Positions 30,724 to 46,252 of a stretch of DNA of 64,000 bases are shown in pieces. A model generated the notes under the pieces. The model saw only the letters and a program-made list of their open reading frames with translations, made no database searches and was not told the origin of the DNA. This stretch comes from an uncultured Clostridia bacterium (lineage in GTDB: Bacteria > Bacillota > Clostridia > Oscillospirales > QAKW01): the NCBI GenBank assembly GCA_944385895.1, contig CALWYZ010000004.1:62001-126000 (forward strand), in the 5' to 3' direction. The position numbers were made by a program, and so were the translations under genes. Numbering within the stretch: position 1 is the first letter of the stretch; each line of letters starts with the position of its first letter.

Positions 30724-31635
30724 TTAAATTTTTGCACGATATTTCTCTAAAAAGCAAATTATCTGATAACAGTCGATCCAGATCTGATTTACGCCGTCCT
30801 TTTGGCTTTCGTCAAAAATCAGCTGAATACCGAAATGCAGGTGCGGAGTATTGATATTGTTTACGTTTTCCTTTGACGAATAGCCCGTCATTCCGAGATA
30901 GCCTATAAGCTGGCCAGCCTTTACCGTGTCGCCCTCTTTGAGACCCTCGGCAAACGGCTTGTTTTTGCGCAGATGAGCATAGTAATAATAGCGCCTGCCG
31001 TCGTTTGAGCGGATACCCACACGCCAGCCGCCGTACTGGTTCCAGCCCAGAGCCTCGATCCTGCCTCCCTCCACCGCCACTATCGGTGTGCCGACAGATC
31101 CCATCATATCATGACCCAGATGCTTTCTCTTGTAGCCGTAGGAGCGTGACGCGCCGAAATCATCATAATGCGAATAGTAATAGCCTGCGGCAAACGGAGA
31201 GTAAACAAGCACTCCGTACTCGCCGTCGTCATTATAGCCGACATATCCCGACAGCACTGCGCTGTAAGCCTCATAGTAGTAATTATAGTATTTCATATCG
31301 GCGGTTATCGTCTGGATATCCTCGGCGTTCTGTATGCGCTCATACAGCTGGGTTATATATTTATCCTTGCCGCTTGTGAATTTGCCGCCGTTTTTGCACG
31401 CGGCATATGCCAAAAGCTCTATCCAGCTGACAGGCGTATCACTGTCATGGGACTGTATATCGATATCAAGCGCCTGACGCAATACAGACGTGGTAGGCGT
31501 AAAATCCACCCACTTTATATAATCCCCCGATACGGTTTTTGCCCGCTCTACCTGCAGCAGAGCCACACAACAGATTGTAAGCACAGCCGAAAGCGCGGCA
31601 GCAGCGATTCTCTTCATACTGTAAATTCTGAACAT
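30724..31635 (-). CDS. M23-family peptidase (LytM/lysostaphin-like)
   Basis: Secreted or membrane-tethered peptidoglycan endopeptidase of 303 residues. An N-terminal hydrophobic segment (about 8-30) acts as signal or anchor. The M23 domain has the zinc ligands in HLGHD (His172, Asp176) and HLHFG (His265, His267), with GTPIVAVEGGRIEALGW and LIGYLGMTGYS between them. The Tyr-rich region 110-160 is not a known domain. GGGAG lies 8 bases before ATG 31635. It lies between other secreted protein genes on the same strand. A role in cell-wall remodelling is likely. Confidence 0.9.
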   Translation of the reverse strand: MFRIYSMKRIAAAALSAVLTICCVALLQVERAKTVSGDYIKWVDFTPTTSVLRQALDIDIQSHDSDTPVSWIELLAYAACKNGGKFTSGKDKYITQLYERIQNAEDIQTITADMKYYNYYYEAYSAVLSGYVGYNDDGEYGVLVYSPFAAGYYYSHYDDFGASRSYGYKRKHLGHDMMGSVGTPIVAVEGGRIEALGWNQYGGWRVGIRSNDGRRYYYYAHLRKNKPFAEGLKEGDTVKAGQLIGYLGMTGYSSKENVNNINTPHLHFGIQLIFDESQKDGVNQIWIDCYQIICFLEKYRAKI

Positions 31636-31733
31636 AAAATCAACTCCCTGATAATTCTATGTTACTCTGCACAAAAAATTGACCCTCCAAGACAATCAAA
31701 AAAACACCCCTAAAGAGTGTTACTGCAAAAAAG

Positions 31734-31761
31734 CCCGCCGCGGACTTATGCCCGCGGCGGG
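31734..31761 (-). terminator. Strong intrinsic terminator
   Basis: A GC-rich perfect 10-base-pair stem (31734-31743 with 31752-31761); on the minus strand it is followed by CTTTTTTG. It ends the amidase gene. Confidence 0.92.
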
Positions 31762-31768
31762 TTATTAA

Positions 31769-33346
31769 TTAAAGAGATTTAAAATAATCGTCAATGCCCA
31801 GCGCTATCTGCTCACCTATACCGTTTATGTTGTTTACTATCCACTCGGCATATGTCGGATAATCGTGAAACTCAACCTCAAGAATCAGATTTGCCATAGT
31901 AGGCAGACGCACCTCGGCATACGGCTTTTGACCGTTTATCTGACTTTCGTACATATCATCATGTATTCCGTTATCATTTGTCGGAGTAAACTGAGAGAGT
32001 CTGTCGTATATAAACTGTGACAGCTCTTTGGCGCCTTTGTTGTTGCCGTTATAATAACAGGTAGTGCCCTGATATTTTCCGTCGTTTGTAAAGCCGACGG
32101 CGTTTGAGTGAATTGCTACATACGCGTCTGCACCAAGCTGCGCCGCCTCATCTGCCCTGTTAAACTCGGCATCTTCTTTTATAGATGTATTTACATCAGC
32201 TGTGTAAACGTCATAGCCCATCTCCTTCAGCCGCTTTTCGACATAAGCCGCCACAAGCTGCATCTGCTCGCCCTCGTTGGTATCGACGCCAGTATACGGA
32301 TTTGTCATCTGGTTGGACGGGCTGAGATAAACAAGATATTTAGCATCGGGGCTTTCATAGCCGTCAAAGAAATAGTTATAGATCATAGACGCGCATTCGG
32401 CACGTATGATATTGTTTTTAGGAGTCAGGTTACCGTCCGCATCGCCGAAGAATATGACTCCAAGCGAGGCTGCGACCGCTTTTTTTGCATAATCGGATGT
32501 TGTATCAAAATCGCCTGCCGCGATCCCGTTTTGCCGTGCTGCACTGACGGCGGCATCGACATCGACAGCTTCAAGCTCCTGCGGATCCATCAGGATACGC
32601 ATCATTATAACAGCGGCTTCCTGACGTTTGATTTCAACCTGCGGATTGAATTTTCCCTCGCCGACGCCGTCAACTATACCTGCCTCTGCACACGCCATGA
32701 CCGCCTCATAATACCATCTGCCGCTTTCAACATCGGTAAAGCTTATCTGTATATCACTTGTCATGACCTGAGGATCGTTGCGGAATATATTATAAATCAT
32801 TTGGCAAAACTGAGCACGTGTCATATTTGAGCGCGGTTCAAATTCTGTCTCAGACATACCGCTGAAAAAACCTGCCGACACGACATCGCGTATTTTCCCG
32901 TATCCCCAATAACTTTTTGTGAGGTCTGTAAACACGCTCATATCAAAATCAGTATCTACCACAATAAAATCAAGAGTATATGTTTTCCCGTATATTTCAA
33001 ATGTATACAATAGTCTTCCCGTCTGTGACGTATCAGGAAAATCCGCCAGTCTTTCATCGTCAAGATAGACGCGCTGCTGCGAATCGTCATCAAACGTAAA
33101 ATCTATGTAGCCCTGCGACAAATCGGGTTTCTCGTTTATATTTATAAATCTATATACAGCATCGACATTCATAATGTCAGACACTACTTTCTTTTCTTGC
33201 TGACTTACGTCCTCGTCCTGATTTCCGTCCTCATCCTGCAAAGACGATGTCTGCTGCTGTTGTTCCTCATTCTGTGCATAAGCGAAGACAGAAAACAGCG
33301 TTGCCGCCATGCAGAAAACAACAACAAAACTTATTAATTTTTTCAT
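31769..33346 (-). CDS. SLH-domain N-acetylmuramoyl-L-alanine amidase (Amidase_3)
   Basis: Exported 525-residue protein. A signal peptide (about 1-24) is followed by an acidic Gln/Glu linker and an N-terminal beta region. Three SLH domains (about 138-185, 201-250, 262-326) include FEPRSNMTRAQFCQMIYN and FTDVESGRWYYEAV. The C-terminal Amidase_3 domain (336-525) has IHSNA (His413), an NEGEQM acidic site (Glu358) and the catalytic LEVEFHD (Glu490/Glu492). The usual first zinc His of the opening motif is replaced by LSPSNQ, as in a divergent amidase subgroup. SLH modules would anchor it to secondary wall polymer. It has its own promoter and terminator. Confidence 0.9.
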   Translation of the reverse strand: MKKLISFVVVFCMAATLFSVFAYAQNEEQQQQTSSLQDEDGNQDEDVSQQEKKVVSDIMNVDAVYRFININEKPDLSQGYIDFTFDDDSQQRVYLDDERLADFPDTSQTGRLLYTFEIYGKTYTLDFIVVDTDFDMSVFTDLTKSYWGYGKIRDVVSAGFFSGMSETEFEPRSNMTRAQFCQMIYNIFRNDPQVMTSDIQISFTDVESGRWYYEAVMACAEAGIVDGVGEGKFNPQVEIKRQEAAVIMMRILMDPQELEAVDVDAAVSAARQNGIAAGDFDTTSDYAKKAVAASLGVIFFGDADGNLTPKNNIIRAECASMIYNYFFDGYESPDAKYLVYLSPSNQMTNPYTGVDTNEGEQMQLVAAYVEKRLKEMGYDVYTADVNTSIKEDAEFNRADEAAQLGADAYVAIHSNAVGFTNDGKYQGTTCYYNGNNKGAKELSQFIYDRLSQFTPTNDNGIHDDMYESQINGQKPYAEVRLPTMANLILEVEFHDYPTYAEWIVNNINGIGEQIALGIDDYFKSL

Positions 33347-35826: not shown

Positions 35827-36792
35827 ATGAATATAACCGTTATCGGCAGCGGTCGCTGGGGCTGTTTTATAGCATGGTACCTAAATAAAATTGGACACCA
35901 CGTCACTGTCTGCGGCAGACCCGACTCGGAAAACTTCAAAGTCCTGGCAAAGCTCAGGACAAACGGAACGGTAAAATTTGATAAACATGTATTATTTACA
36001 GATGATATGGCTTTGGCGACTGCAGAGTGCAATATCATTGTTGTTTCAATAAACTCGCAGGGACTGCGTTGTCTCATGCAGCAGCTAAGCGAGTTTGACA
36101 TGTCCGGAAAAACAGTGGTCTTATGTATGAAAGGACTTGAAATCGGAAGCGGCCTCAGACTGTCTCAGGTCACGGCACAATGTCTGGGCGACAGCGTGCC
36201 GGTCGCAGTTTGGGTAGGACCGGGGCATGTCCAACAATTTCTGAAAGGCGTACCCAACTGCATGGTCATAGACAGTCAAAACGAAGCCGTCACGGATTTT
36301 CTCATAAAACAGTTTTCAAGTGAGCTTATTCGGTTTTATTACGGACGGGATATTATAGGCAGCGAAATCGGCGCCGCATCTAAAAATGTAATAGGAATTG
36401 CAGCAGGTATATTAGACGGACTTTCACTATCGTCTCTAAAAGGTGCGTTGATGTCTCGGGGCACCCGGGAAATTGCCCGTCTGATACACGATCTGGGCGG
36501 TAACGAATTGTCTGCATATGGGCTGTGTCATCTGGGCGATTATGAAGCAACTTTGTTTTCAGAATTCAGCCATAACAGAAAATATGGCCAAATGTATGCA
36601 AAAGGTGAGCATTTTGATAAGCTTGCAGAAGGCTATTACACTGCAAAAGCAATAATTGACCTTGCCAAGATGCAGAAAACCGATCTGCCTATTTGCCGTG
36701 CAGTATATGACACTCTGTATAACGGTATACCGCCGCAAAAGGCAGTTGACAGTCTGTTTTCAAGACAGCTTAAGGATGAATTTTATATATAG
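35827..36792 (+). CDS. gpsA: NAD(P)-dependent glycerol-3-phosphate dehydrogenase
   Basis: Reduces dihydroxyacetone phosphate to sn-glycerol-3-phosphate for phospholipid synthesis; 321 residues. It has an N-terminal Rossmann VIGSGRWGCFIAWYL, CMKGLEIGSGLRLSQV, the substrate-binding lysine in GAASKNVIGIAAGILDGL, and NELSAYGLCHLGDYEATLFS in the helical C-terminal domain. AAGGAG precedes the ATG. The domain order and length fit GpsA. Linkage to a cation antiporter is not functionally explained. A hairpin terminator begins inside its stop codon. Confidence 0.93.
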   Translation: MNITVIGSGRWGCFIAWYLNKIGHHVTVCGRPDSENFKVLAKLRTNGTVKFDKHVLFTDDMALATAECNIIVVSINSQGLRCLMQQLSEFDMSGKTVVLCMKGLEIGSGLRLSQVTAQCLGDSVPVAVWVGPGHVQQFLKGVPNCMVIDSQNEAVTDFLIKQFSSELIRFYYGRDIIGSEIGAASKNVIGIAAGILDGLSLSSLKGALMSRGTREIARLIHDLGGNELSAYGLCHLGDYEATLFSEFSHNRKYGQMYAKGEHFDKLAEGYYTAKAIIDLAKMQKTDLPICRAVYDTLYNGIPPQKAVDSLFSRQLKDEFYI

Positions 36793-36822
36793 CCGGAGAA
36801 AAAATTGATTTTCTCCGGCTAT
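36789..36822 (+). terminator. Intrinsic terminator overlapping gpsA stop codon
   Basis: A 12-base-pair core (36791-36802 with 36809-36820), loop of 6, extended by two flanking pairs. The downstream tail ATACTCTTTG is only moderately T-rich. Confidence 0.75.
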
Positions 36823-36839
36823 ACTCTTTGTATTATTAA

Positions 36840-36868
36840 TTGACAATTATATATAAAGATTTTATAAT
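36840..36868 (+). promoter_or_regulatory. Strong sigma-A promoter for giant surface protein
   Basis: Consensus TTGACA (36840-36845), 17-base spacer, consensus TATAAT (36863-36868); AAGGAG lies just before the ATG at 36898. Both boxes are perfect, suggesting high expression. Confidence 0.88.
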
Positions 36869-36897
36869 AAATTTAATAATATAAAGGAGAAGTTAAT

Positions 36898-39800
36898 ATG
36901 TTGAAAAAAATTTACAGACTGATATCATTTATACTTATTGTTGCCATGTTTGCAATGATATGTCCTGTAGATTTTATCTCGGTCCATGCACTTTCGGAAA
37001 ATGCGGTAGTTCCGACTGAATCGGTAGGACATCAGCTAAACTATTCACAACTTCAGGCGTCCGCATATATAGTAAACCCGCAGTGGACAAATTTAAGCCA
37101 AGGGCAAAATCTGTCGTATGTATTCCGAGGCACCACTTATAATGAGACATACGACCCTTCGCGTCACTTTTCAAGCTTTGACTCTGCATATTCTTACTTT
37201 GAGTCGCTCTATACCCTTGAAAACGGAAATTTGAAAAGCGGTATATCGGAACAGACCCCTGTTTTTATACTTGCACCCGGCACTTACAGTCAGCCCCGTA
37301 TGACAGTGCGCTATAATGCAATAATTCTGGGCGCAAACGCAGGAATTTCTCCTAATGCAAGCCTTGACCTGGATACCGCAAATCCAAAATCAGGCTGGGC
37401 TGAAAACACCTCACGCACAAACCCGACAACTGTTGCAAACGGTTTTTCACGGTCTACCCGCATCAACGGATCACTCACAAACAATAAATATGAGCTTGCC
37501 GCACAAAATGACGGAACAACTGCTTTCAATCTTATCATTGACGGCGTGGATTTCAGGTCCGCTTCAAGCTTTCTGACGCTTGAAGATACATCTTCAGCAG
37601 TCTCACGCCAGATGAATGTAACAATACAGAACTGCAATATCAGCACTACCAATTCTTCATTCTACATAAATGACAGCAACTCTCCCAATAACACAAACAA
37701 TTATGACTTTAAAAATATCCGAAGCATAGATTCCAAAACTTCAGGCTTTTACGGAACGTATGCTTGTTCTATCCGTATGGACGGAGTATATTTTTCACAA
37801 AGCTCCGGTTATCTGGCAACATCTTCATCCATGCAAAAAGAGAATTTTTCATTTACAATGCAAAATTCGTACATATACAAAAACACCGGCAGCTATAATA
37901 TCACATTCAGATATACCGACGGCAACCACAAAAGCAAAGTAATGATCAATCACAACCTGTTTTATGAGCACAACAGCGGGTCTTACGGCGCGCTTATGTT
38001 TTACAGCACAAAGACCTCTCGTTATTCCTCATACGAGATCGATATCCACAACAATACTTTTATTGCCGATAAAACATATAACAGCGCAGATAAAAATACA
38101 TTCTTGAACGGCAATACAAGTTATCAGCAGGGCGCGTACACAATGACAGTCAACCACAACCGCGTCATAGGCTATACAAGCCTGTTCCCAAACATGCCCG
38201 ATAATGCCAGCTATATAGTTGCGGATTTCAACTATAACTATTTTGCGCCTACCTATACGAGCCATTCGGACGTACTGGGAACGGAAAGCGAGTACTTCTC
38301 CTCTACACCGTACTCCGATCCTATAGACATTGCAAATCTTGTTTACTATCAGGACTATGCAATGACAATATATGACGGAATGCTGGACGTATCGGGCGTA
38401 AGCTTTTATGACGATGCTGACAGCGTTAGCATAGACAACGACAACAATCTTATAACCGCACAGTATACTTGCGGCAAAAACATCAGCAATCCTCAGCTGT
38501 ATTTTTATGATGACGGCGCAAGCTCAGCATTCTATTCAGACAGTGACTGCACAAATTTGATAACCTCTGTCACCGCTCCGGCCGAAGAGGTAATAACTAC
38601 CGTATATGCAAAAGTCACAAACGGCTCTGCCAGCAAGATAATGACAGTCAAGCTTTACGGCGCTGATGCGTCCGATTCGTTTGCAGACAGCTGGACAGAC
38701 CCGGAAGGAATAATTGGCAGCGACGCCTATCTTCTTGCGCCGCAAACAGCTAATATGTCAAGCGGCAGCGAGTACAAGGCAGCCTGGAACGGTAAAGTCT
38801 ATACTTTTACAGTAGGAACAAACGCATTTTCATCTCTGGACAAAATATATGAAGCCGCCGGTAGCTATGTGCCCCAGATTATACTGCCGTACGGCACATA
38901 CGGTCATCTCAACATAACAAAACCTTGCCAGATATACGGCGAAAATTACGAGAGCCCGGCAATTATCGGCGACGGTATTTACGACTGGGATCAGGGCTTT
39001 GCATGGAACAGCGGCAAAATCTCACAGGTCAGCGGAATAACCCTTTCCTGCGCCGATGTTACCGTATCAGGAATAGAGCTTACAGGTTCTTTTAACGATT
39101 CCTCACGCACCTCATCAGGCTCTGTTGTATTCAAAAACTCAATTATAAACGTTGCAGATACCGCGGCAGACGGTTACAGACAATTCAGCATCACAAACGA
39201 CGCCGTCAAAACAAGTCAAAATTCATATACGCTGGACGGGATATACATAAAATCCCTGCCGCGAGAATCGGACGGCAGACACATACTTTTGGGCGGATAT
39301 CTACCTTCATTGCTGACGGTAGTCAACTGTTACAGCGACGGTGCCGTATCGCAGTTGTTTGATTCGCAGTGGAACAACACGCTTTATTCATGGGACTGCT
39401 CTGTCACCGTTACTGACTGCCGCTTTGACGGTATTGATATGTACTCAAGCATTTTGACAGACGCAAGAGACGGCGTCCAGAGCGCACAGCACCTGATCTC
39501 ATACACAATAGAAAACAACGTATTTACAAGCCAAAGCAGTCTTTCAGGGGCACTGTTAGATCTGTCACCTGTTTGTTATAATTCACTTGTTATCCAAAAT
39601 AATATTTTTATCAACAGTGCTTCTCAAAACAGCAAAGTTCTGGAATGTGACTATAAAAACTTACAGTATAACGGAGAAAATTTCTCTTTTACCGATAACC
39701 GTATAGTAGGTTTTTCATGCTCGTTCGGTGCAAAAAATTACGGAAACGCACTTTCACTGATAGATGTATCGCAAAATTACTTTTCAGATTATTCTGAAGA

Positions 39801-42800
39801 CTTTTCTGCAGCAGCTTCAGGAAAATGCCCCCAGGGGTTTGCACTTTGCAGTCTATACTATACAGATTATGCAATGTCGTCGCTAAAGTCACCCATATCC
39901 GTCAATTTTACGGACAAAAACGGACTTGTTTTTGACAGCATCAACTCAGCACTTGAACTGAATGTCAGCTCCGACCAGCAAAGTTTGGATTTTACGGACG
40001 GATATATCGAAAATCTTGAAAATAATATACTGACCGGTAAATATCTTATCAGCGGAAATACAGCTGATTTATCTAATATATCACTTAATGATACTATAAC
40101 AACTGTTGAGCTTAAAATATGTGTACCTGATAACCTGTATGTATTTTCCACATATACACTTAAGATCATTCGCCAGATACCTGAACAGCTTATTATTGAA
40201 TATATAACCTCAGACAAAGGACAAATATCTTACAATGAACTTAACGGAGGTTATAATCTTACACTTCCTGAAACCTCCTCGAGTGCAGATATCACAGTTA
40301 ATACTCCGTCGGGCTCTTCTTCACAGCTGATTTATAACAATGAGCCGGCATCATCAATCAGCGGCGTCCAAAGCGGAGAAAACAAAACATACATCATCCG
40401 GGTATCAAACGGTAATATTCACATTGATTATAATCTCACTGTCATAAGACCGATATCCAGCGGCATTGTTCTTGATTATGACTCATATGCATCATCTGCA
40501 TACATAATCGACAGCGACTGGGAGAATGTATCTTCTTCAAATGTGAGCTTTGTTTACCGCGGTACAACATATACTCAGCCATATGATGCAAACCGTCACT
40601 TTTCTAACTTTGATGACGCATATGCTCATTGGCTCAGCGGCAATCCGGATATTCTGCATGACACTCCTGTATTTATATTTACTGCCGGGACCTACGGTAC
40701 AATAAAGATAAACTACCGTGCAATAATACTTGGAACCAACGCCGGTATAAATCCAAATGATCCAAATGCGGATGTATCCGAGCTTACTCCAAGCGGCAGC
40801 ATAGCGTCAAACTCTGAATGGGACAGCCAGAATGAAACAGTATTTGACGAAACTATTTACCGTACGACTCGTGTCAGCTCAAACGATATTTTGACACTTG
40901 AAAAGACTGTCCAGGATGCAGAGGCAGCCGCAGATGAACAAATGCAGTTTTTCCTTGTCATTGACGGAATAAAATTTACCGGCAGCAGCTATAAAGTCAG
41001 CATTGACGATGTTGACATCGGCAGCAGAACGGACAGCGAAAATAACATTTCACTGACAGTAACCGGCCGCCGTAAAGATACAATGTACTTTCAAAACATA
41101 AAATCGGAAAATCAGACCGGACATCTTTATACAGCACAGGACACCACCTTTAATTTCAATGATCTGACGGTTAAGAATATCAGGGTGACCGGCTTTAATG
41201 GTTCGGCACTATTCAGAAAATATCTTGACACATTGGTGCTGGACGGCGCATATATTACAGATTCCTCTATGTACATAAGTATCTTCGATGTGGACTCCAG
41301 CATGAATATGCGCCATGATATGGACTATACCGTTAAAAACAGTGCTTTTGTAAATAACTCACTGACACGGACTATACGTATCAAAACAACACCGCATTCT
41401 ACAGGTGATTTCTCAAGCGCAAAGCTGGAAATATACAACAACGCATTTTTGGAGACCGGAAGCGCTGAATGGGGTATAATTTCTGTATCGGCACAGCTTC
41501 CCGGAATAACCACTTTGATTCATGACAATCTGTTTTGCCAGCTTGGTGAATATAAAATAAAAACAGCGATTGAAGGAAATTCCGAATTTTACAACAGCCC
41601 CATGACAATGGTAGTTAACAGGAACCGTTTTATCGGTATACAGTCCTACCTTCCTAATCTGGCAAATGTAACAGACGAAAATCTTGCAAATCTGGACTTT
41701 GATTTTAACAATAATTATTTCAGCCAGTCATTCACCTCCGTGTCCGATAACAGCGGCACACTTCCGCAATATATCTCCGGTCCTGACGGTAATTACGACC
41801 CGATAGGCGCAGACTCACTCATTTACTATCACGACTATGCGCTCCAGACCCTTAATACCGATTTTGATATCACAGGTGTCACCTTCTGCAATGAAGAGAC
41901 ACTAACCCAAATCGATAACATCGGTATGACTGTCAAAGTCACGCTGTTACAAAACCAGACCGGCCAGCTTATCTTCACAACAAGAGGCAGTGGTACTCAG
42001 CAAGTACTCCGCCCTGCAGATTCACAGCAGGCTGTAACTCAGATAAGCTATACAGATGTGCTTGCAGGAAACACCGATTATATCTTGACGGTCACAAAAA
42101 ACGGAACCCAGAAAAGCTTTAATGTGACTCTTGAGGCAAACGAAATCGGATTCTTTAACAGCACATATTCAGACCCTACCGGAGAAATACAGAACAGCGC
42201 ATATCTTCTCGATCCGCAAATTATGTATAAAAATGACGGCGACGTATTTATAAGAGAATGGAAAGGCGAATATTATAAATTCACCGTCGGACAAAATGCG
42301 TTTTCAGATATTTCACAAATAAACTCTGTACGTCCCCAAGGACATATACAAATCATTATCCCGGACACAGAAATACCTAATGAACTTAAGATCTTTAAAG
42401 ACACTTCAGTTTACGGAGTCAATTACGATATAAATCCAAACGTTCCCATTGAGGATGATATATCATCAGACTGGACACTTAACTCACAGTGGGGACTTAA
42501 CGGTGAGAGTGAAGTCGGATCTATCGCGATTGACAGAAATGCCACAGGAACCGATATAACGATAAAAGGCATAACACTAAGGGGAAGATTTTACGACACC
42601 GAGCGCGCAGTCAGCTCCAACAGAACCTCGGTAACGCTCGAAAATATAGTAGTAGAGCATGAAAGCCTTCTTGCTGAAAGCCCTTATGCATACTATTCTA
42701 CGGTATATACTTTCACTTTCTCCAATCCCAACAGTCAAACAGGAAACATTAACAATGACATAGGCGTTATGCGTAATATCCGCATAGAAAAGGTAATGTG

Positions 42801-45800
42801 CGGTCCTGATATTGAAGAAGGAAGAAACAGACTGCTTAACGAATATCTGCCAAGCGACTTTACAATAGACGGACTGTACTGCGATTTAACCTCATCCACT
42901 GTAAGTCTGTTCGGATGGTGGAAGCTCAGCGAAAATCAGAGCGACGGAAGACTGACAGTCAAAAACTGTAATTTCAGAAACAGTTTTGAGACGTCTACAT
43001 CCGATTATCTGTACTTTGAAGGAAGAAATCACAATAACAATACACAGGGGCAGACGCTTGAGCTAAACTTATATGATAACTGCTTTTATAACTTCCAGAC
43101 CGCGGCAAGCGGATTTGTAATATCGCCTTACGCATACAGCAATATTAATATAGTGGGAAATCTGTTTTTGTCAACCCAGGCTAAAACCAATCAGTTTATC
43201 AGATTTTCCGATACCTCACAAAATAACGGAATACTGGAAATGAATATATTCAACAACCGTTTTGTAGGCGTATCCGGTAACATTAATAATCCGCAGAACA
43301 ATGATACTGTTGACCTGTCGGGAAATTACTATAACAGCTATTCAAGCAACTTTAAAAATGCAACTACAACCAGCTCCCTGACCGGCAGCAATACCATAAA
43401 AAGCTGGTACTATACAAACTATGCCTTAACCTCACGTTCTGACGGAGTGGCTGCCTATTCATTCGGAAACGGCATGACAAGCAATTTTACCTCAAAGACT
43501 TTGCAGCTTACGCTCGGCACCGGAATTAGCACATTCTCGCTCAATGATTATATAACATTTAACGGAGGAAATACCTTTACAATATCTTCTGTCAATGATA
43601 TTACCTCTGTTCCTGTTGCCGACACGACCTATACACTTACCGTCACAAACGGAAGCGCCAGTGAACAATGGTCTCTTGATGTAAATATAAACCCCGCGGA
43701 CATGAGCGCACTCTATACTGCTTTGGATAATGCAAGTCAATATACAAACACAGATCTTTACCGCGAATTTGCATACCAGAGGCTGATAACACACGTAGCT
43801 GAGGGCAAAGACATTATCCACAGCGACACGGCTCAAAAAGATGCAGCCGACAATGCTGCAGCTAAAATCAATCTTGCTATTGATATTTTGACAGGACTTT
43901 GCGATCTGGATGATCTTATATCCGTTGCTCAGGATAAAGATGTATCTAATGCAGAACCGCAGAAGCAGACTGAATTTTACGCCGCCTTGAATCAAGCAAT
44001 TATGACAGCGGATAACCCGCAAAGTTCACTCTCAGATATAAATAACGCATATTTAGCGCTTGATAATAATCTTTCAGTACTGGACTTTGATATTAATGAG
44101 TTTACAGCTGTTCTTGACAATGCTGAATCTATAATAGAAAGCCCGGTATTCAAGTACTATACAAGAGCGTCTTCTTCTGAGCTCAAAGCAAAATACTCTT
44201 TGGCTTCAGATCTGTATAGCGGCAATTATTCGCTGATTGAGTTGAAAACGGCAATGAATCAGCTTAAAACGGCTATCAGCGGACTTAAAGGTAATACCGC
44301 CTTGCTTGCAGTAGCTATATCTAAGGCGGAAAAAATAAATAATGTAAATGGCAAATATACAACATCTTCCTTTGCTGCTCTGACTCAGGCAATACAATCT
44401 GCAAAGGCTCTGACAAATCCCACAGCAAACGATATAATGAATGCCTGTGAGCTTTTGGAAGATCTTAAGAATTCTCTTGTTGATCTTTCTGAATATAAAT
44501 CAGTGCTTGAACGCGTAGAGTCGATAGACAACAATGACAATATTTACTGTACTCCGACTTTTGAAGCTCTGACCCAGGCGATAGCTGATGCTCATGCTGC
44601 CGCTGATGATTTTACCGACAAACAAAAGGTTAACCAAATTATTGAAATGCTGGAAAATGCAGAGGCTAATCTGAAAACTCATACTCTGGGCACCTATATT
44701 TCAAACAATGATGCCACCTGCACGCAAGACGGTACCAAAACAGCTCATTGCACAACTGCAGGATGTTCATATGAATCGACTGTTACTGACACAGGCTCTG
44801 CTTTTGAGCATATATGGGACGAAGGTACAGTTACAGTGCCTGCAACCTGTACAGAAGAGGGTGAGATGACTTATCACTGCACAAGAGCGGGATGTGACGG
44901 AACAAAGACACAAGCAATACCCGTAAATCCTGATGCACATGATTGGGACGAAGGCGTGGTTACCAAAGAACCTACATGTACAGAAGATGGCGAGAAGACT
45001 GTCAGCTGTACAGTAGACGGCTGTGACGTTACAGGAGAGGTTATACCGATACCTGCACTCGGGCACTTGTGGGATGAAGGAGAAGTTACCAAAGAACCTA
45101 CATGTTCAGCAGAAGGTGAAATGACCTATCACTGCACAAGAGCGGATTGTGACGGAACCAAGACACAAGCAATACCCGTAAATCCTGATGCACATGTATG
45201 GGACGAAGGTACAGTTACAACACCTGCAACCTGCCAGACAGAGGGTGTTAAGACTTACACATGTAAGAACAACCCCGAGCATACAAGAACAGAAGCAATT
45301 CCTGTCGATCCTGATGCACATGTATGGGATGAAGGCGTAGTTACCACAGAGCCTACCTGCTCTGCAGCAGGCGTTAAGACCTACACCTGTAAAAACGATC
45401 CTGCACATACAAGAACAGAAGTTATTCCTGTTGATCCCAACGCACACGTATGGGGCGAATATGTATACAACAATGACGCCACAACAGAGGCAGACGGAAC
45501 AGAGACCGCAATATGTCAGTACTGCGATGCAACGGATACAAGAACAGCAGAGGGTACAAAAATAGAAATATTAGACAGCTCAACGATCTTTACTGACGTA
45601 GATTCAGGCAAATGGTACAAAGAGTATATTGACTATGTGTCAACATATAAACTTATGAACGGAATGAATAAAACAGAGTTTGAACCTACAACAACACTTA
45701 ACCGTGCAATGTTTGTACAGATACTTGCAAACATGAGCGGAGTAGATACTGCAAATCGAGATGTAGAAACGATATTCACAGACGCACCTGCCGGCAAGTG

Positions 45801-46143
45801 GTACACACCTGCAGTCAAGTGGGCAAGCGAGAACGGGATCGTAGACGGAATGACACCGACAACGTTTGAGCCGTTAGAGCCGATCCAGCGTCAGCAGATA
45901 TGTGTAATGGTAGTAAGATATGCGGAAAAATTCGGCATAGAGCTTACAGCGGACATAGAGAAAAAAGAATTCGGCGATGACGCAGCAATTCAGAACTATG
46001 CCAAAGAAGCGGTATATATCTGCCAGCAGGCAGGAATCGTAGACGGCAAGACCGAGACGGATTTTCTGCCACGAGACAATGCAACACGCGCAGAGGTAGC
46101 TGCCATAATCATGAGATTCTACAAGAATTTTGTAGCAAAATAA
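36898..46143 (+). CDS. Giant SLH surface protein with repeated beta-helix modules
   Basis: A 3,081-residue exported protein. After a signal peptide (about 1-31) come four large modules in A-B-A-B order. A1 (about 48-590) and A2 (about 1190-1750) share SAYIVNPQW/SAYIIDSDW, YRGTTY, FDSAY/FDDAY and AIILGANAGI/AIILGTNAGI. B1 (about 593-1190) and B2 (about 1752-2260) share WTDPEGIIGSDAYLL/YSDPTGEIQNSAYLL and FTVGTNAF/FTVGQNAF. The many short V/I-rich, Asn-rich turns (VTIQNCNIS, VKNCNF) suggest right-handed parallel beta-helices, as in pectate-lyase-like adhesins. Helical FIVAR-like repeats follow (about 2262-2590), then five Cys-rich 42-43-residue repeats (2595-2890) and three SLH domains (about 2895-3081). 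No catalytic motif is recognised. An adhesin or polysaccharide-binding S-layer protein is the best inference. Confidence 0.9.
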   Translation: MLKKIYRLISFILIVAMFAMICPVDFISVHALSENAVVPTESVGHQLNYSQLQASAYIVNPQWTNLSQGQNLSYVFRGTTYNETYDPSRHFSSFDSAYSYFESLYTLENGNLKSGISEQTPVFILAPGTYSQPRMTVRYNAIILGANAGISPNASLDLDTANPKSGWAENTSRTNPTTVANGFSRSTRINGSLTNNKYELAAQNDGTTAFNLIIDGVDFRSASSFLTLEDTSSAVSRQMNVTIQNCNISTTNSSFYINDSNSPNNTNNYDFKNIRSIDSKTSGFYGTYACSIRMDGVYFSQSSGYLATSSSMQKENFSFTMQNSYIYKNTGSYNITFRYTDGNHKSKVMINHNLFYEHNSGSYGALMFYSTKTSRYSSYEIDIHNNTFIADKTYNSADKNTFLNGNTSYQQGAYTMTVNHNRVIGYTSLFPNMPDNASYIVADFNYNYFAPTYTSHSDVLGTESEYFSSTPYSDPIDIANLVYYQDYAMTIYDGMLDVSGVSFYDDADSVSIDNDNNLITAQYTCGKNISNPQLYFYDDGASSAFYSDSDCTNLITSVTAPAEEVITTVYAKVTNGSASKIMTVKLYGADASDSFADSWTDPEGIIGSDAYLLAPQTANMSSGSEYKAAWNGKVYTFTVGTNAFSSLDKIYEAAGSYVPQIILPYGTYGHLNITKPCQIYGENYESPAIIGDGIYDWDQGFAWNSGKISQVSGITLSCADVTVSGIELTGSFNDSSRTSSGSVVFKNSIINVADTAADGYRQFSITNDAVKTSQNSYTLDGIYIKSLPRESDGRHILLGGYLPSLLTVVNCYSDGAVSQLFDSQWNNTLYSWDCSVTVTDCRFDGIDMYSSILTDARDGVQSAQHLISYTIENNVFTSQSSLSGALLDLSPVCYNSLVIQNNIFINSASQNSKVLECDYKNLQYNGENFSFTDNRIVGFSCSFGAKNYGNALSLIDVSQNYFSDYSEDFSAAASGKCPQGFALCSLYYTDYAMSSLKSPISVNFTDKNGLVFDSINSALELNVSSDQQSLDFTDGYIENLENNILTGKYLISGNTADLSNISLNDTITTVELKICVPDNLYVFSTYTLKIIRQIPEQLIIEYITSDKGQISYNELNGGYNLTLPETSSSADITVNTPSGSSSQLIYNNEPASSISGVQSGENKTYIIRVSNGNIHIDYNLTVIRPISSGIVLDYDSYASSAYIIDSDWENVSSSNVSFVYRGTTYTQPYDANRHFSNFDDAYAHWLSGNPDILHDTPVFIFTAGTYGTIKINYRAIILGTNAGINPNDPNADVSELTPSGSIASNSEWDSQNETVFDETIYRTTRVSSNDILTLEKTVQDAEAAADEQMQFFLVIDGIKFTGSSYKVSIDDVDIGSRTDSENNISLTVTGRRKDTMYFQNIKSENQTGHLYTAQDTTFNFNDLTVKNIRVTGFNGSALFRKYLDTLVLDGAYITDSSMYISIFDVDSSMNMRHDMDYTVKNSAFVNNSLTRTIRIKTTPHSTGDFSSAKLEIYNNAFLETGSAEWGIISVSAQLPGITTLIHDNLFCQLGEYKIKTAIEGNSEFYNSPMTMVVNRNRFIGIQSYLPNLANVTDENLANLDFDFNNNYFSQSFTSVSDNSGTLPQYISGPDGNYDPIGADSLIYYHDYALQTLNTDFDITGVTFCNEETLTQIDNIGMTVKVTLLQNQTGQLIFTTRGSGTQQVLRPADSQQAVTQISYTDVLAGNTDYILTVTKNGTQKSFNVTLEANEIGFFNSTYSDPTGEIQNSAYLLDPQIMYKNDGDVFIREWKGEYYKFTVGQNAFSDISQINSVRPQGHIQIIIPDTEIPNELKIFKDTSVYGVNYDINPNVPIEDDISSDWTLNSQWGLNGESEVGSIAIDRNATGTDITIKGITLRGRFYDTERAVSSNRTSVTLENIVVEHESLLAESPYAYYSTVYTFTFSNPNSQTGNINNDIGVMRNIRIEKVMCGPDIEEGRNRLLNEYLPSDFTIDGLYCDLTSSTVSLFGWWKLSENQSDGRLTVKNCNFRNSFETSTSDYLYFEGRNHNNNTQGQTLELNLYDNCFYNFQTAASGFVISPYAYSNINIVGNLFLSTQAKTNQFIRFSDTSQNNGILEMNIFNNRFVGVSGNINNPQNNDTVDLSGNYYNSYSSNFKNATTTSSLTGSNTIKSWYYTNYALTSRSDGVAAYSFGNGMTSNFTSKTLQLTLGTGISTFSLNDYITFNGGNTFTISSVNDITSVPVADTTYTLTVTNGSASEQWSLDVNINPADMSALYTALDNASQYTNTDLYREFAYQRLITHVAEGKDIIHSDTAQKDAADNAAAKINLAIDILTGLCDLDDLISVAQDKDVSNAEPQKQTEFYAALNQAIMTADNPQSSLSDINNAYLALDNNLSVLDFDINEFTAVLDNAESIIESPVFKYYTRASSSELKAKYSLASDLYSGNYSLIELKTAMNQLKTAISGLKGNTALLAVAISKAEKINNVNGKYTTSSFAALTQAIQSAKALTNPTANDIMNACELLEDLKNSLVDLSEYKSVLERVESIDNNDNIYCTPTFEALTQAIADAHAAADDFTDKQKVNQIIEMLENAEANLKTHTLGTYISNNDATCTQDGTKTAHCTTAGCSYESTVTDTGSAFEHIWDEGTVTVPATCTEEGEMTYHCTRAGCDGTKTQAIPVNPDAHDWDEGVVTKEPTCTEDGEKTVSCTVDGCDVTGEVIPIPALGHLWDEGEVTKEPTCSAEGEMTYHCTRADCDGTKTQAIPVNPDAHVWDEGTVTTPATCQTEGVKTYTCKNNPEHTRTEAIPVDPDAHVWDEGVVTTEPTCSAAGVKTYTCKNDPAHTRTEVIPVDPNAHVWGEYVYNNDATTEADGTETAICQYCDATDTRTAEGTKIEILDSSTIFTDVDSGKWYKEYIDYVSTYKLMNGMNKTEFEPTTTLNRAMFVQILANMSGVDTANRDVETIFTDAPAGKWYTPAVKWASENGIVDGMTPTTFEPLEPIQRQQICVMVVRYAEKFGIELTADIEKKEFGDDAAIQNYAKEAVYICQQAGIVDGKTETDFLPRDNATRAEVAAIIMRFYKNFVAK
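44809..45444 (+). repeat. Five tandem 126/129-base coding repeats (Cys-rich)
   Basis: In-frame units begin at 44809, 44938, 45064, 45193 and 45319, with a degenerate sixth at 45445. Each encodes HxWDEGxVTxxPTC, then about 9 residues, a Cys, four residues, a Cys or His, and ends IPVxPxAH. Neighbouring units are highly similar at DNA level. The C-x9-C-x4-C/H spacing may bind metal or form disulfides, which is not established. Confidence 0.9.
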
Positions 46144-46162
46144 TAAAGCAAAATACCAAAAT

Positions 46163-46194
46163 AAAAAACAGGCAAGATATCTTGCCTGTTTTTT
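46163..46194 (+). terminator. Intrinsic terminator of giant surface gene
   Basis: A perfect 32-base palindrome centred between 46178 and 46179, with A6 and T6 ends. It lies 19 bases after the stop codon. Confidence 0.88.
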
Positions 46195-46252
46195 ATTTCA
46201 GTTTAAATAATGCTATAAGTTACAATAAATACAAAAAGAATTTGCCTAAACA

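What the first reader, a model, noticed from the sequence alone, without database searches (positions are those of the whole stretch)
36898..46143. Giant 3,081-residue S-layer protein built as A-B-A-B beta-helix modules
Seen: two A modules and two B modules, alternating and diverged, then FIVAR-like, Cys-rich and SLH parts. Whole-module tandem duplication (A-B unit of about 1,150 residues) is unusual. There are no obvious catalytic residues, a perfect promoter, and one very long gene, so it may be a major adhesin or glycan-binding layer protein.
Basis: partly seen in the sequence, partly recalled or inferred. Interest (0 to 1): 0.65.

Follow-up and report, generated by a model that had tools for sequence, protein, structure and literature searches.

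The report
Giant four-module beta-helix surface protein
A Clostridia bacterium carries one very long gene for a cell-surface protein made of four distantly related copies of a spiral-shaped (beta-helix) module on a stalk and a cell-wall anchor, probably used to catch polysaccharides alongside sister proteins that carry de-acylating enzymes; the fold is known, but the module family is undescribed and was found in only one bacterial family.

Summary
One 3,081-aa ORF (36898-46143) has the order A1-B1-A2-B2-FIVAR-Cys-rich repeats-3 SLH. A1/A2 align over ~510 residues (33%, Z~50 against shuffles), B1/B2 over ~480 (30%, Z~33). A and B are homologous to each other (hhalign 99%, E 6e-18): four copies of one ~500-residue module. 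AlphaFold models, though of low confidence, match right-handed parallel beta-helices (Z 16-21: PL6, PfbA, Pel9A, tailspikes); no Pfam, NCBIfam or PDB sequence match. The duplication is ancient and fixed: ABAB orthologs lie at the same locus in two other species, under purifying selection, each with an exact sigma-70 promoter. The modules were found only in one bacterial family (10 of 12 genomes; none in over 500 others sampled), as AB, ABAB, A or B proteins. Seven tested relatives fuse them to SGNH/GDSL esterases. The window protein keeps no common catalytic residue set. Most likely it is a multivalent, SLH-tethered glycan-capture protein partnering surface esterases; ligand binding is inferred. 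'S-layer protein' in the lattice sense is not shown: it is one of about 23 SLH frames, with moderate codon adaptation. New variant of a known kind.

The parts
36788..36823 (+). intrinsic terminator of the upstream gpsA gene
   Evidence: 15-pair stem
36840..36868 (+). sigma-70 promoter TTGACA-17-TATAAT, 12/12
   Evidence: exact in the ABAB orthologs of two other species
36885..36889 (+). ribosome-binding site AGGAG
   Evidence: sequence
36898..46143 (+). giant gene, 3,081 aa
36898..36990 (+). signal peptide (residues 1-31, by eye)
   Evidence: hydrophobic N-terminus with basic start and a small-residue end; inferred from sequence
36979..38613 (+). module A1 (residues 28-572), parallel beta-helix plus C-terminal beta region
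38614..40413 (+). module B1 (residues 573-1172), parallel beta-helix plus beta-rich linker
40414..42090 (+). module A2 (residues 1173-1731)
   Evidence: 33% to A1
42091..43737 (+). module B2 (residues 1732-2280)
   Evidence: 30% to B1
43738..44772 (+). FIVAR-type helical stalk (residues 2281-2625)
   Evidence: PF07554 E 1.9e-8, four stretches
44809..45573 (+). Cys/His-rich ~43-residue repeats (residues 2638-2892)
45583..46131 (+). three SLH domains (residues 2896-3078), cell-wall anchor
   Evidence: PF00395 E 6.9e-26; matches the solved SLH part of S-layer protein Sap
46156..46201 (.). terminator hairpin between the converging giant and decarboxylase genes

Best explanation
A secreted, SLH-anchored, multivalent glycan-capture protein. 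Shown: four divergent copies of one module (A-B-A-B), predicted as parallel beta-helices, then a FIVAR stalk, Cys-rich repeats and three SLH domains; long conservation of this order in three species; relatives that fuse the same modules to SGNH/CE2-type esterases. Inferred: the SLH trimer binds pyruvylated secondary cell-wall polymer, the FIVAR and Cys-rich parts hold the modules away from the wall, and the beta-helix faces bind polysaccharide chains (probably acylated), holding them at the surface for the sister esterase proteins and other enzymes.
For: Self-alignment and profile comparison; beta-helix fold with Z 16-21 to glycan-active or glycan-binding helices, including the adhesin PfbA and the second helix of alginate lyase AlyGC; SGNH/GDSL esterase domains in seven tested relatives from four genomes, two with the CE2 N-domain; conserved columns of 55 modules are scaffold residues, and window B1 or B2 lacks several acidic residues that other B modules keep; purifying selection on all four modules while the stalk drifts faster; a polysaccharide pyruvyl-transferase domain in the genome; exact promoter kept in three species at a conserved locus.
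Against: No ligand data. No similarity by sequence to any known binding module. The modules are net acidic, unlike the basic groove described for PfbA. The structural models have low confidence (pLDDT 47 and 60), so a groove could not be examined. A beta-helix alone does not show glycan binding.
Confidence: 0.5

Rival explanations
1. One or more of the modules is an enzyme of an undescribed beta-helix lyase or hydrolase family, so that the protein is a surface depolymerase.
For: Most structural neighbours are enzymes (PL6, PL9, GH28, CE8, tailspike depolymerases); sister proteins carry esterases, a usual partner of lyases; most B modules keep D734, D/E927, R935, D956 and D990.
Against: No residue set is shared by all four window modules; B1 has V at 809, B2 has G at the 927 position and N at the 990 position; A modules keep few charged positions, chiefly H90, D215 and D486. 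No CAZyme sequence match.
Confidence: 0.22
2. An adhesin for a protein or glycoprotein on a host or another microbe (PfbA-like), unconnected with feeding.
For: PfbA is among the closest structures to B1 (Z 20.1); long stalked multi-domain build; gut methanogen adhesin-like proteins also use right-handed beta-helix domains (PMC11532034).
Against: Fusion of the modules to esterases in relatives points to polymer processing; the modules are more conserved between species than the stalk.
Confidence: 0.2
3. A lattice-forming S-layer protein or a structural spacer of the envelope.
For: Three SLH domains and an exact, conserved promoter.
Against: About 23 SLH open frames in the genome, moderate codon adaptation, not found at the flanking loci in one species of the genus (draft genome).
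Confidence: 0.08

Closest known systems
ChiW of Paenibacillus FPU-7 and other CBM54-SLH proteins (PMC5132251)
   Same: SLH-anchored multi-domain surface protein with a right-handed beta-helix of a cell-wall-glycan-binding module family, and Ig-like spacers
   Different: ChiW has one 12-coil helix and two GH18 catalytic domains; here four ~500-residue modules, no recognised catalytic domain, no sequence match
PfbA, pneumococcal surface adhesin (PMC3718772)
   Same: wall-attached protein with a parallel beta-helix and no detected lyase activity; among the best structural matches of B1 (Z 20.1)
   Different: single helix, sortase-type wall attachment, no modular duplication
PL6 alginate lyases AlyGC / BcAlyPL6
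   Same: two beta-helices in a row; B1 matches the C-terminal helix of AlyGC best (Z 21.4, 12% identity)
   Different: catalytic; active-site residues not shown here; different size and context
CE2 / SGNH esterase fusions in the same bacterial family (G005, G003, G002, G000 paralogs)
   Same: same A/B modules, found in this study
   Different: carry SGNH esterase domains, which the window protein lacks
Adhesin-like proteins of gut methanogens (PMC11532034)
   Same: large families of surface proteins with right-handed beta-helix domains
   Different: archaeal, membrane anchored, different repeats

Membership tests
SLH-anchored surface proteins | three SLH domains and a secretion signal | tested here: met
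   PF00395 three stretches, E 6.9e-26; signal sequence by eye
SLH-anchored surface proteins | pyruvylated wall polymer made by the host | tested here: inconclusive
   one PS_pyruv_trans domain in the genome, fused to a glycosyltransferase; product not known
S-layer (lattice) proteins | self-assembly into a two-dimensional lattice, very high abundance | not testable with these tools
   codon adaptation only slightly above the window median
Right-handed parallel beta-helix (pectin-lyase-like) fold | coiled three-sheet helix | tested here: met
   A1 part Z 17, B1 Z 16-21 to solved beta-helices, from low-confidence models
Known Pfam/NCBIfam beta-helix families | match above curated cut-off | tested here: not met
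   no such match for A1, B1, A2, B2
Beta-helix lyases and hydrolases (PL1, PL6, PL9, GH28, CE8) | conserved catalytic residues and metal site | tested here: inconclusive
   no charged set common to all modules; no coordinates to superpose active sites
CBM54 | homology to the ChiW/Lic16A module and glycan binding | tested here: inconclusive
   no PDB sequence match to the modules; ChiW not among the listed fold matches, which does not exclude it; binding not testable
FIVAR | PF07554 match | tested here: met
   E 1.9e-8, 35.2 bits against cut-off 29.2

The most novel reading that the evidence does not exclude
The A/B module is an undescribed beta-helix carbohydrate-active family (binding or lyase), restricted to one bacterial family, that works as a cell-surface capture-and-deacylate system: ABAB proteins hold the polymer and A/B-SGNH (some CE2-type) giants strip its acyl groups.
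Probability: 0.3. Interest if true: 0.55.

Novelty: new variant of a known kind. Interest (0 to 1): 0.42.

Why it matters
It defines a module family that no searched database names, shows a whole-unit duplication held fixed in order through species divergence, and ties it by fusion to esterases. If binding is shown, it gives a new type of surface glycan-binding module and a testable model of how small-genome Clostridia hold acylated polysaccharides at the cell wall.

Tried and rejected
First self-BLAST gave no output, probably through a bad setting, and was replaced. In the first tree 'module 3' of the giant paralogs was taken as a B module; it is GDSL domains behind a B-like cap, and the tree was rebuilt without it (quick method; the careful search did not finish). 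Whether A1 pairs with A2 before the GDSL paralog is not settled: the two trees differ. Viral contigs gave no relative. ChiW/CBM54 does not appear among the listed fold matches; that is no evidence of absence. The exact promoter alone is weak evidence of high expression, as such promoters occur about once per 13-23 kb here. The Monoglobus pectinilyticus genome paper, a possible comparator recalled from memory, is not held.

Full report
THE OBSERVATION. The ORF at 36898-46143 is intact and encodes 3,081 residues. Split at residues 573, 1173, 1732 and 2281 it shows four modules. A1/A2 share 33% over 512 aligned residues (E 5e-58, Z 50 over 200 shuffles), B1/B2 30% over 481 (E 2e-32, Z 33); A against B gives Z 7-13. 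Profile comparison of A with B gives 99% probability, E 5.8e-18 over 401 columns. So the gene holds four copies of one module, in the order A-B-A-B. The tail has FIVAR (E 1.9e-8), five to six Cys/His-rich repeats and three SLH domains. The promoter is an exact consensus, with terminators on both sides.

FOLD. No Pfam or NCBIfam model matches any module, and profiles of the modules find nothing in PDB sequences. AlphaFold with four rows for A1-B1 (pLDDT 47) and eight rows for B1 (pLDDT 60, pTM 0.66) gave low-confidence but coherent models. Second-look alignment put the A part on parallel beta-helices (Z 17.4 tailspike 6c72, 17.1 alginate lyase 6kfn) and the B part too (Z 16.3 PfbA, 16.0 Pel9A); B1 alone reached Z 21.4 to the C-terminal helix of AlyGC and 20.1 to PfbA. 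Foldseek alone had no hit at E below 0.001 for B1 and two for A1-B1, both PL6 lyase chains.

RELATIVES. In 197 genomes centred on this one, 10 matched, all in the same family; a sample of 391 genomes of the class, partly overlapping, gave two matches, both again that family. ABAB orthologs occur in G001 (82/66/75/74% by module, cut by a contig end) and G002 (67/55/64/65%), next to the same antiporter and asparaginase genes. G003, of the same genus, lacks it at both flanks in a draft genome. The genus has other members: a 1,671-1,808-aa AB protein is the widest spread in the family, a ~3,330-aa protein with one A and three B modules has three GDSL esterase domains in G000, and single-A or single-B proteins exist. 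In the trees, each position groups with its orthologs on long stems, so the duplications predate the divergence of the three species.

FUNCTIONAL CLUES. Seven relatives tested carry SGNH/GDSL domains (in G000, G002, G003 and G005); two of them also the CE2 N-domain, and one a DUF4886 domain. All four window modules are under purifying selection: amino-acid change 0.12-0.25 per site against nearly saturated silent sites between G000 and G001. Over 55 modules the conserved columns are mostly Gly, Asn, Phe, Tyr and Pro of the coil; no charged set is common to all four window modules. The promoter is exact in the ABAB orthologs of three species and not in the nine paralogs examined, but exact promoters are fairly common in this genome, and codon adaptation is moderate. 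The genome has about 23 SLH open frames and a pyruvyl-transferase domain.

INTERPRETATION. The best account is a stalked, multivalent glycan-capture protein anchored by SLH. The nearest described designs are ChiW, with a beta-helix CBM54 beside SLH (PMC5132251), and PfbA, a beta-helix adhesin in which no lyase activity was found (PMC3718772). Glycan binding, the acylated nature of the ligand and cooperation with the esterases are inference. An unrecognised enzyme activity is the main rival.

LIMITS. The organism is known only as a Clostridia relative of MAG contig CALXGU010000017.1; habitat is not given by the tools. G001, G003, G005, G009 and G010 are incomplete draft genomes. Module edges are good to about 10-20 residues.

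Noticed in passing
L023:5355-15350 (G000:C15:22354-32349): Own-genome paralog of 3,332 aa with one A and three B beta-helix modules and three GDSL esterase domains but no SLH match; a B-type cap of ~90 residues sits before the first esterase.
   Followed up: partly
L070:1-1959, L074:1-468: Two contigs of the genome begin inside the Cys-rich/SLH tail; tails in five places are 63-86% alike to the window's, which probably breaks the assembly and may allow exchange by recombination.
   Followed up: partly
44809-45573: Repeats of the form HxWDEG...TC...C...[CH] keep a Cys/His pattern that could bind metal; no Pfam family matches.
   Followed up: no
L088:2319-4583 (G000:C16): Polysaccharide pyruvyl-transferase domain fused behind a glycosyltransferase-4 domain in one 755-codon open frame.
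   Followed up: no
L031:7344-12854 (G004:C29): A B-type module protein that also carries an endonuclease/exonuclease/phosphatase domain.
   Followed up: no
window 1226, 14586, 36840 (+); 30695, 59929 (-): Five exact TTGACA-N16-18-TATAAT promoters in one 64-kb window.
   Followed up: partly
window 30724-33346 (-): An M23 peptidase gene and an SLH-amidase gene lie side by side near the giant gene, in the same order in G001.
   Followed up: no
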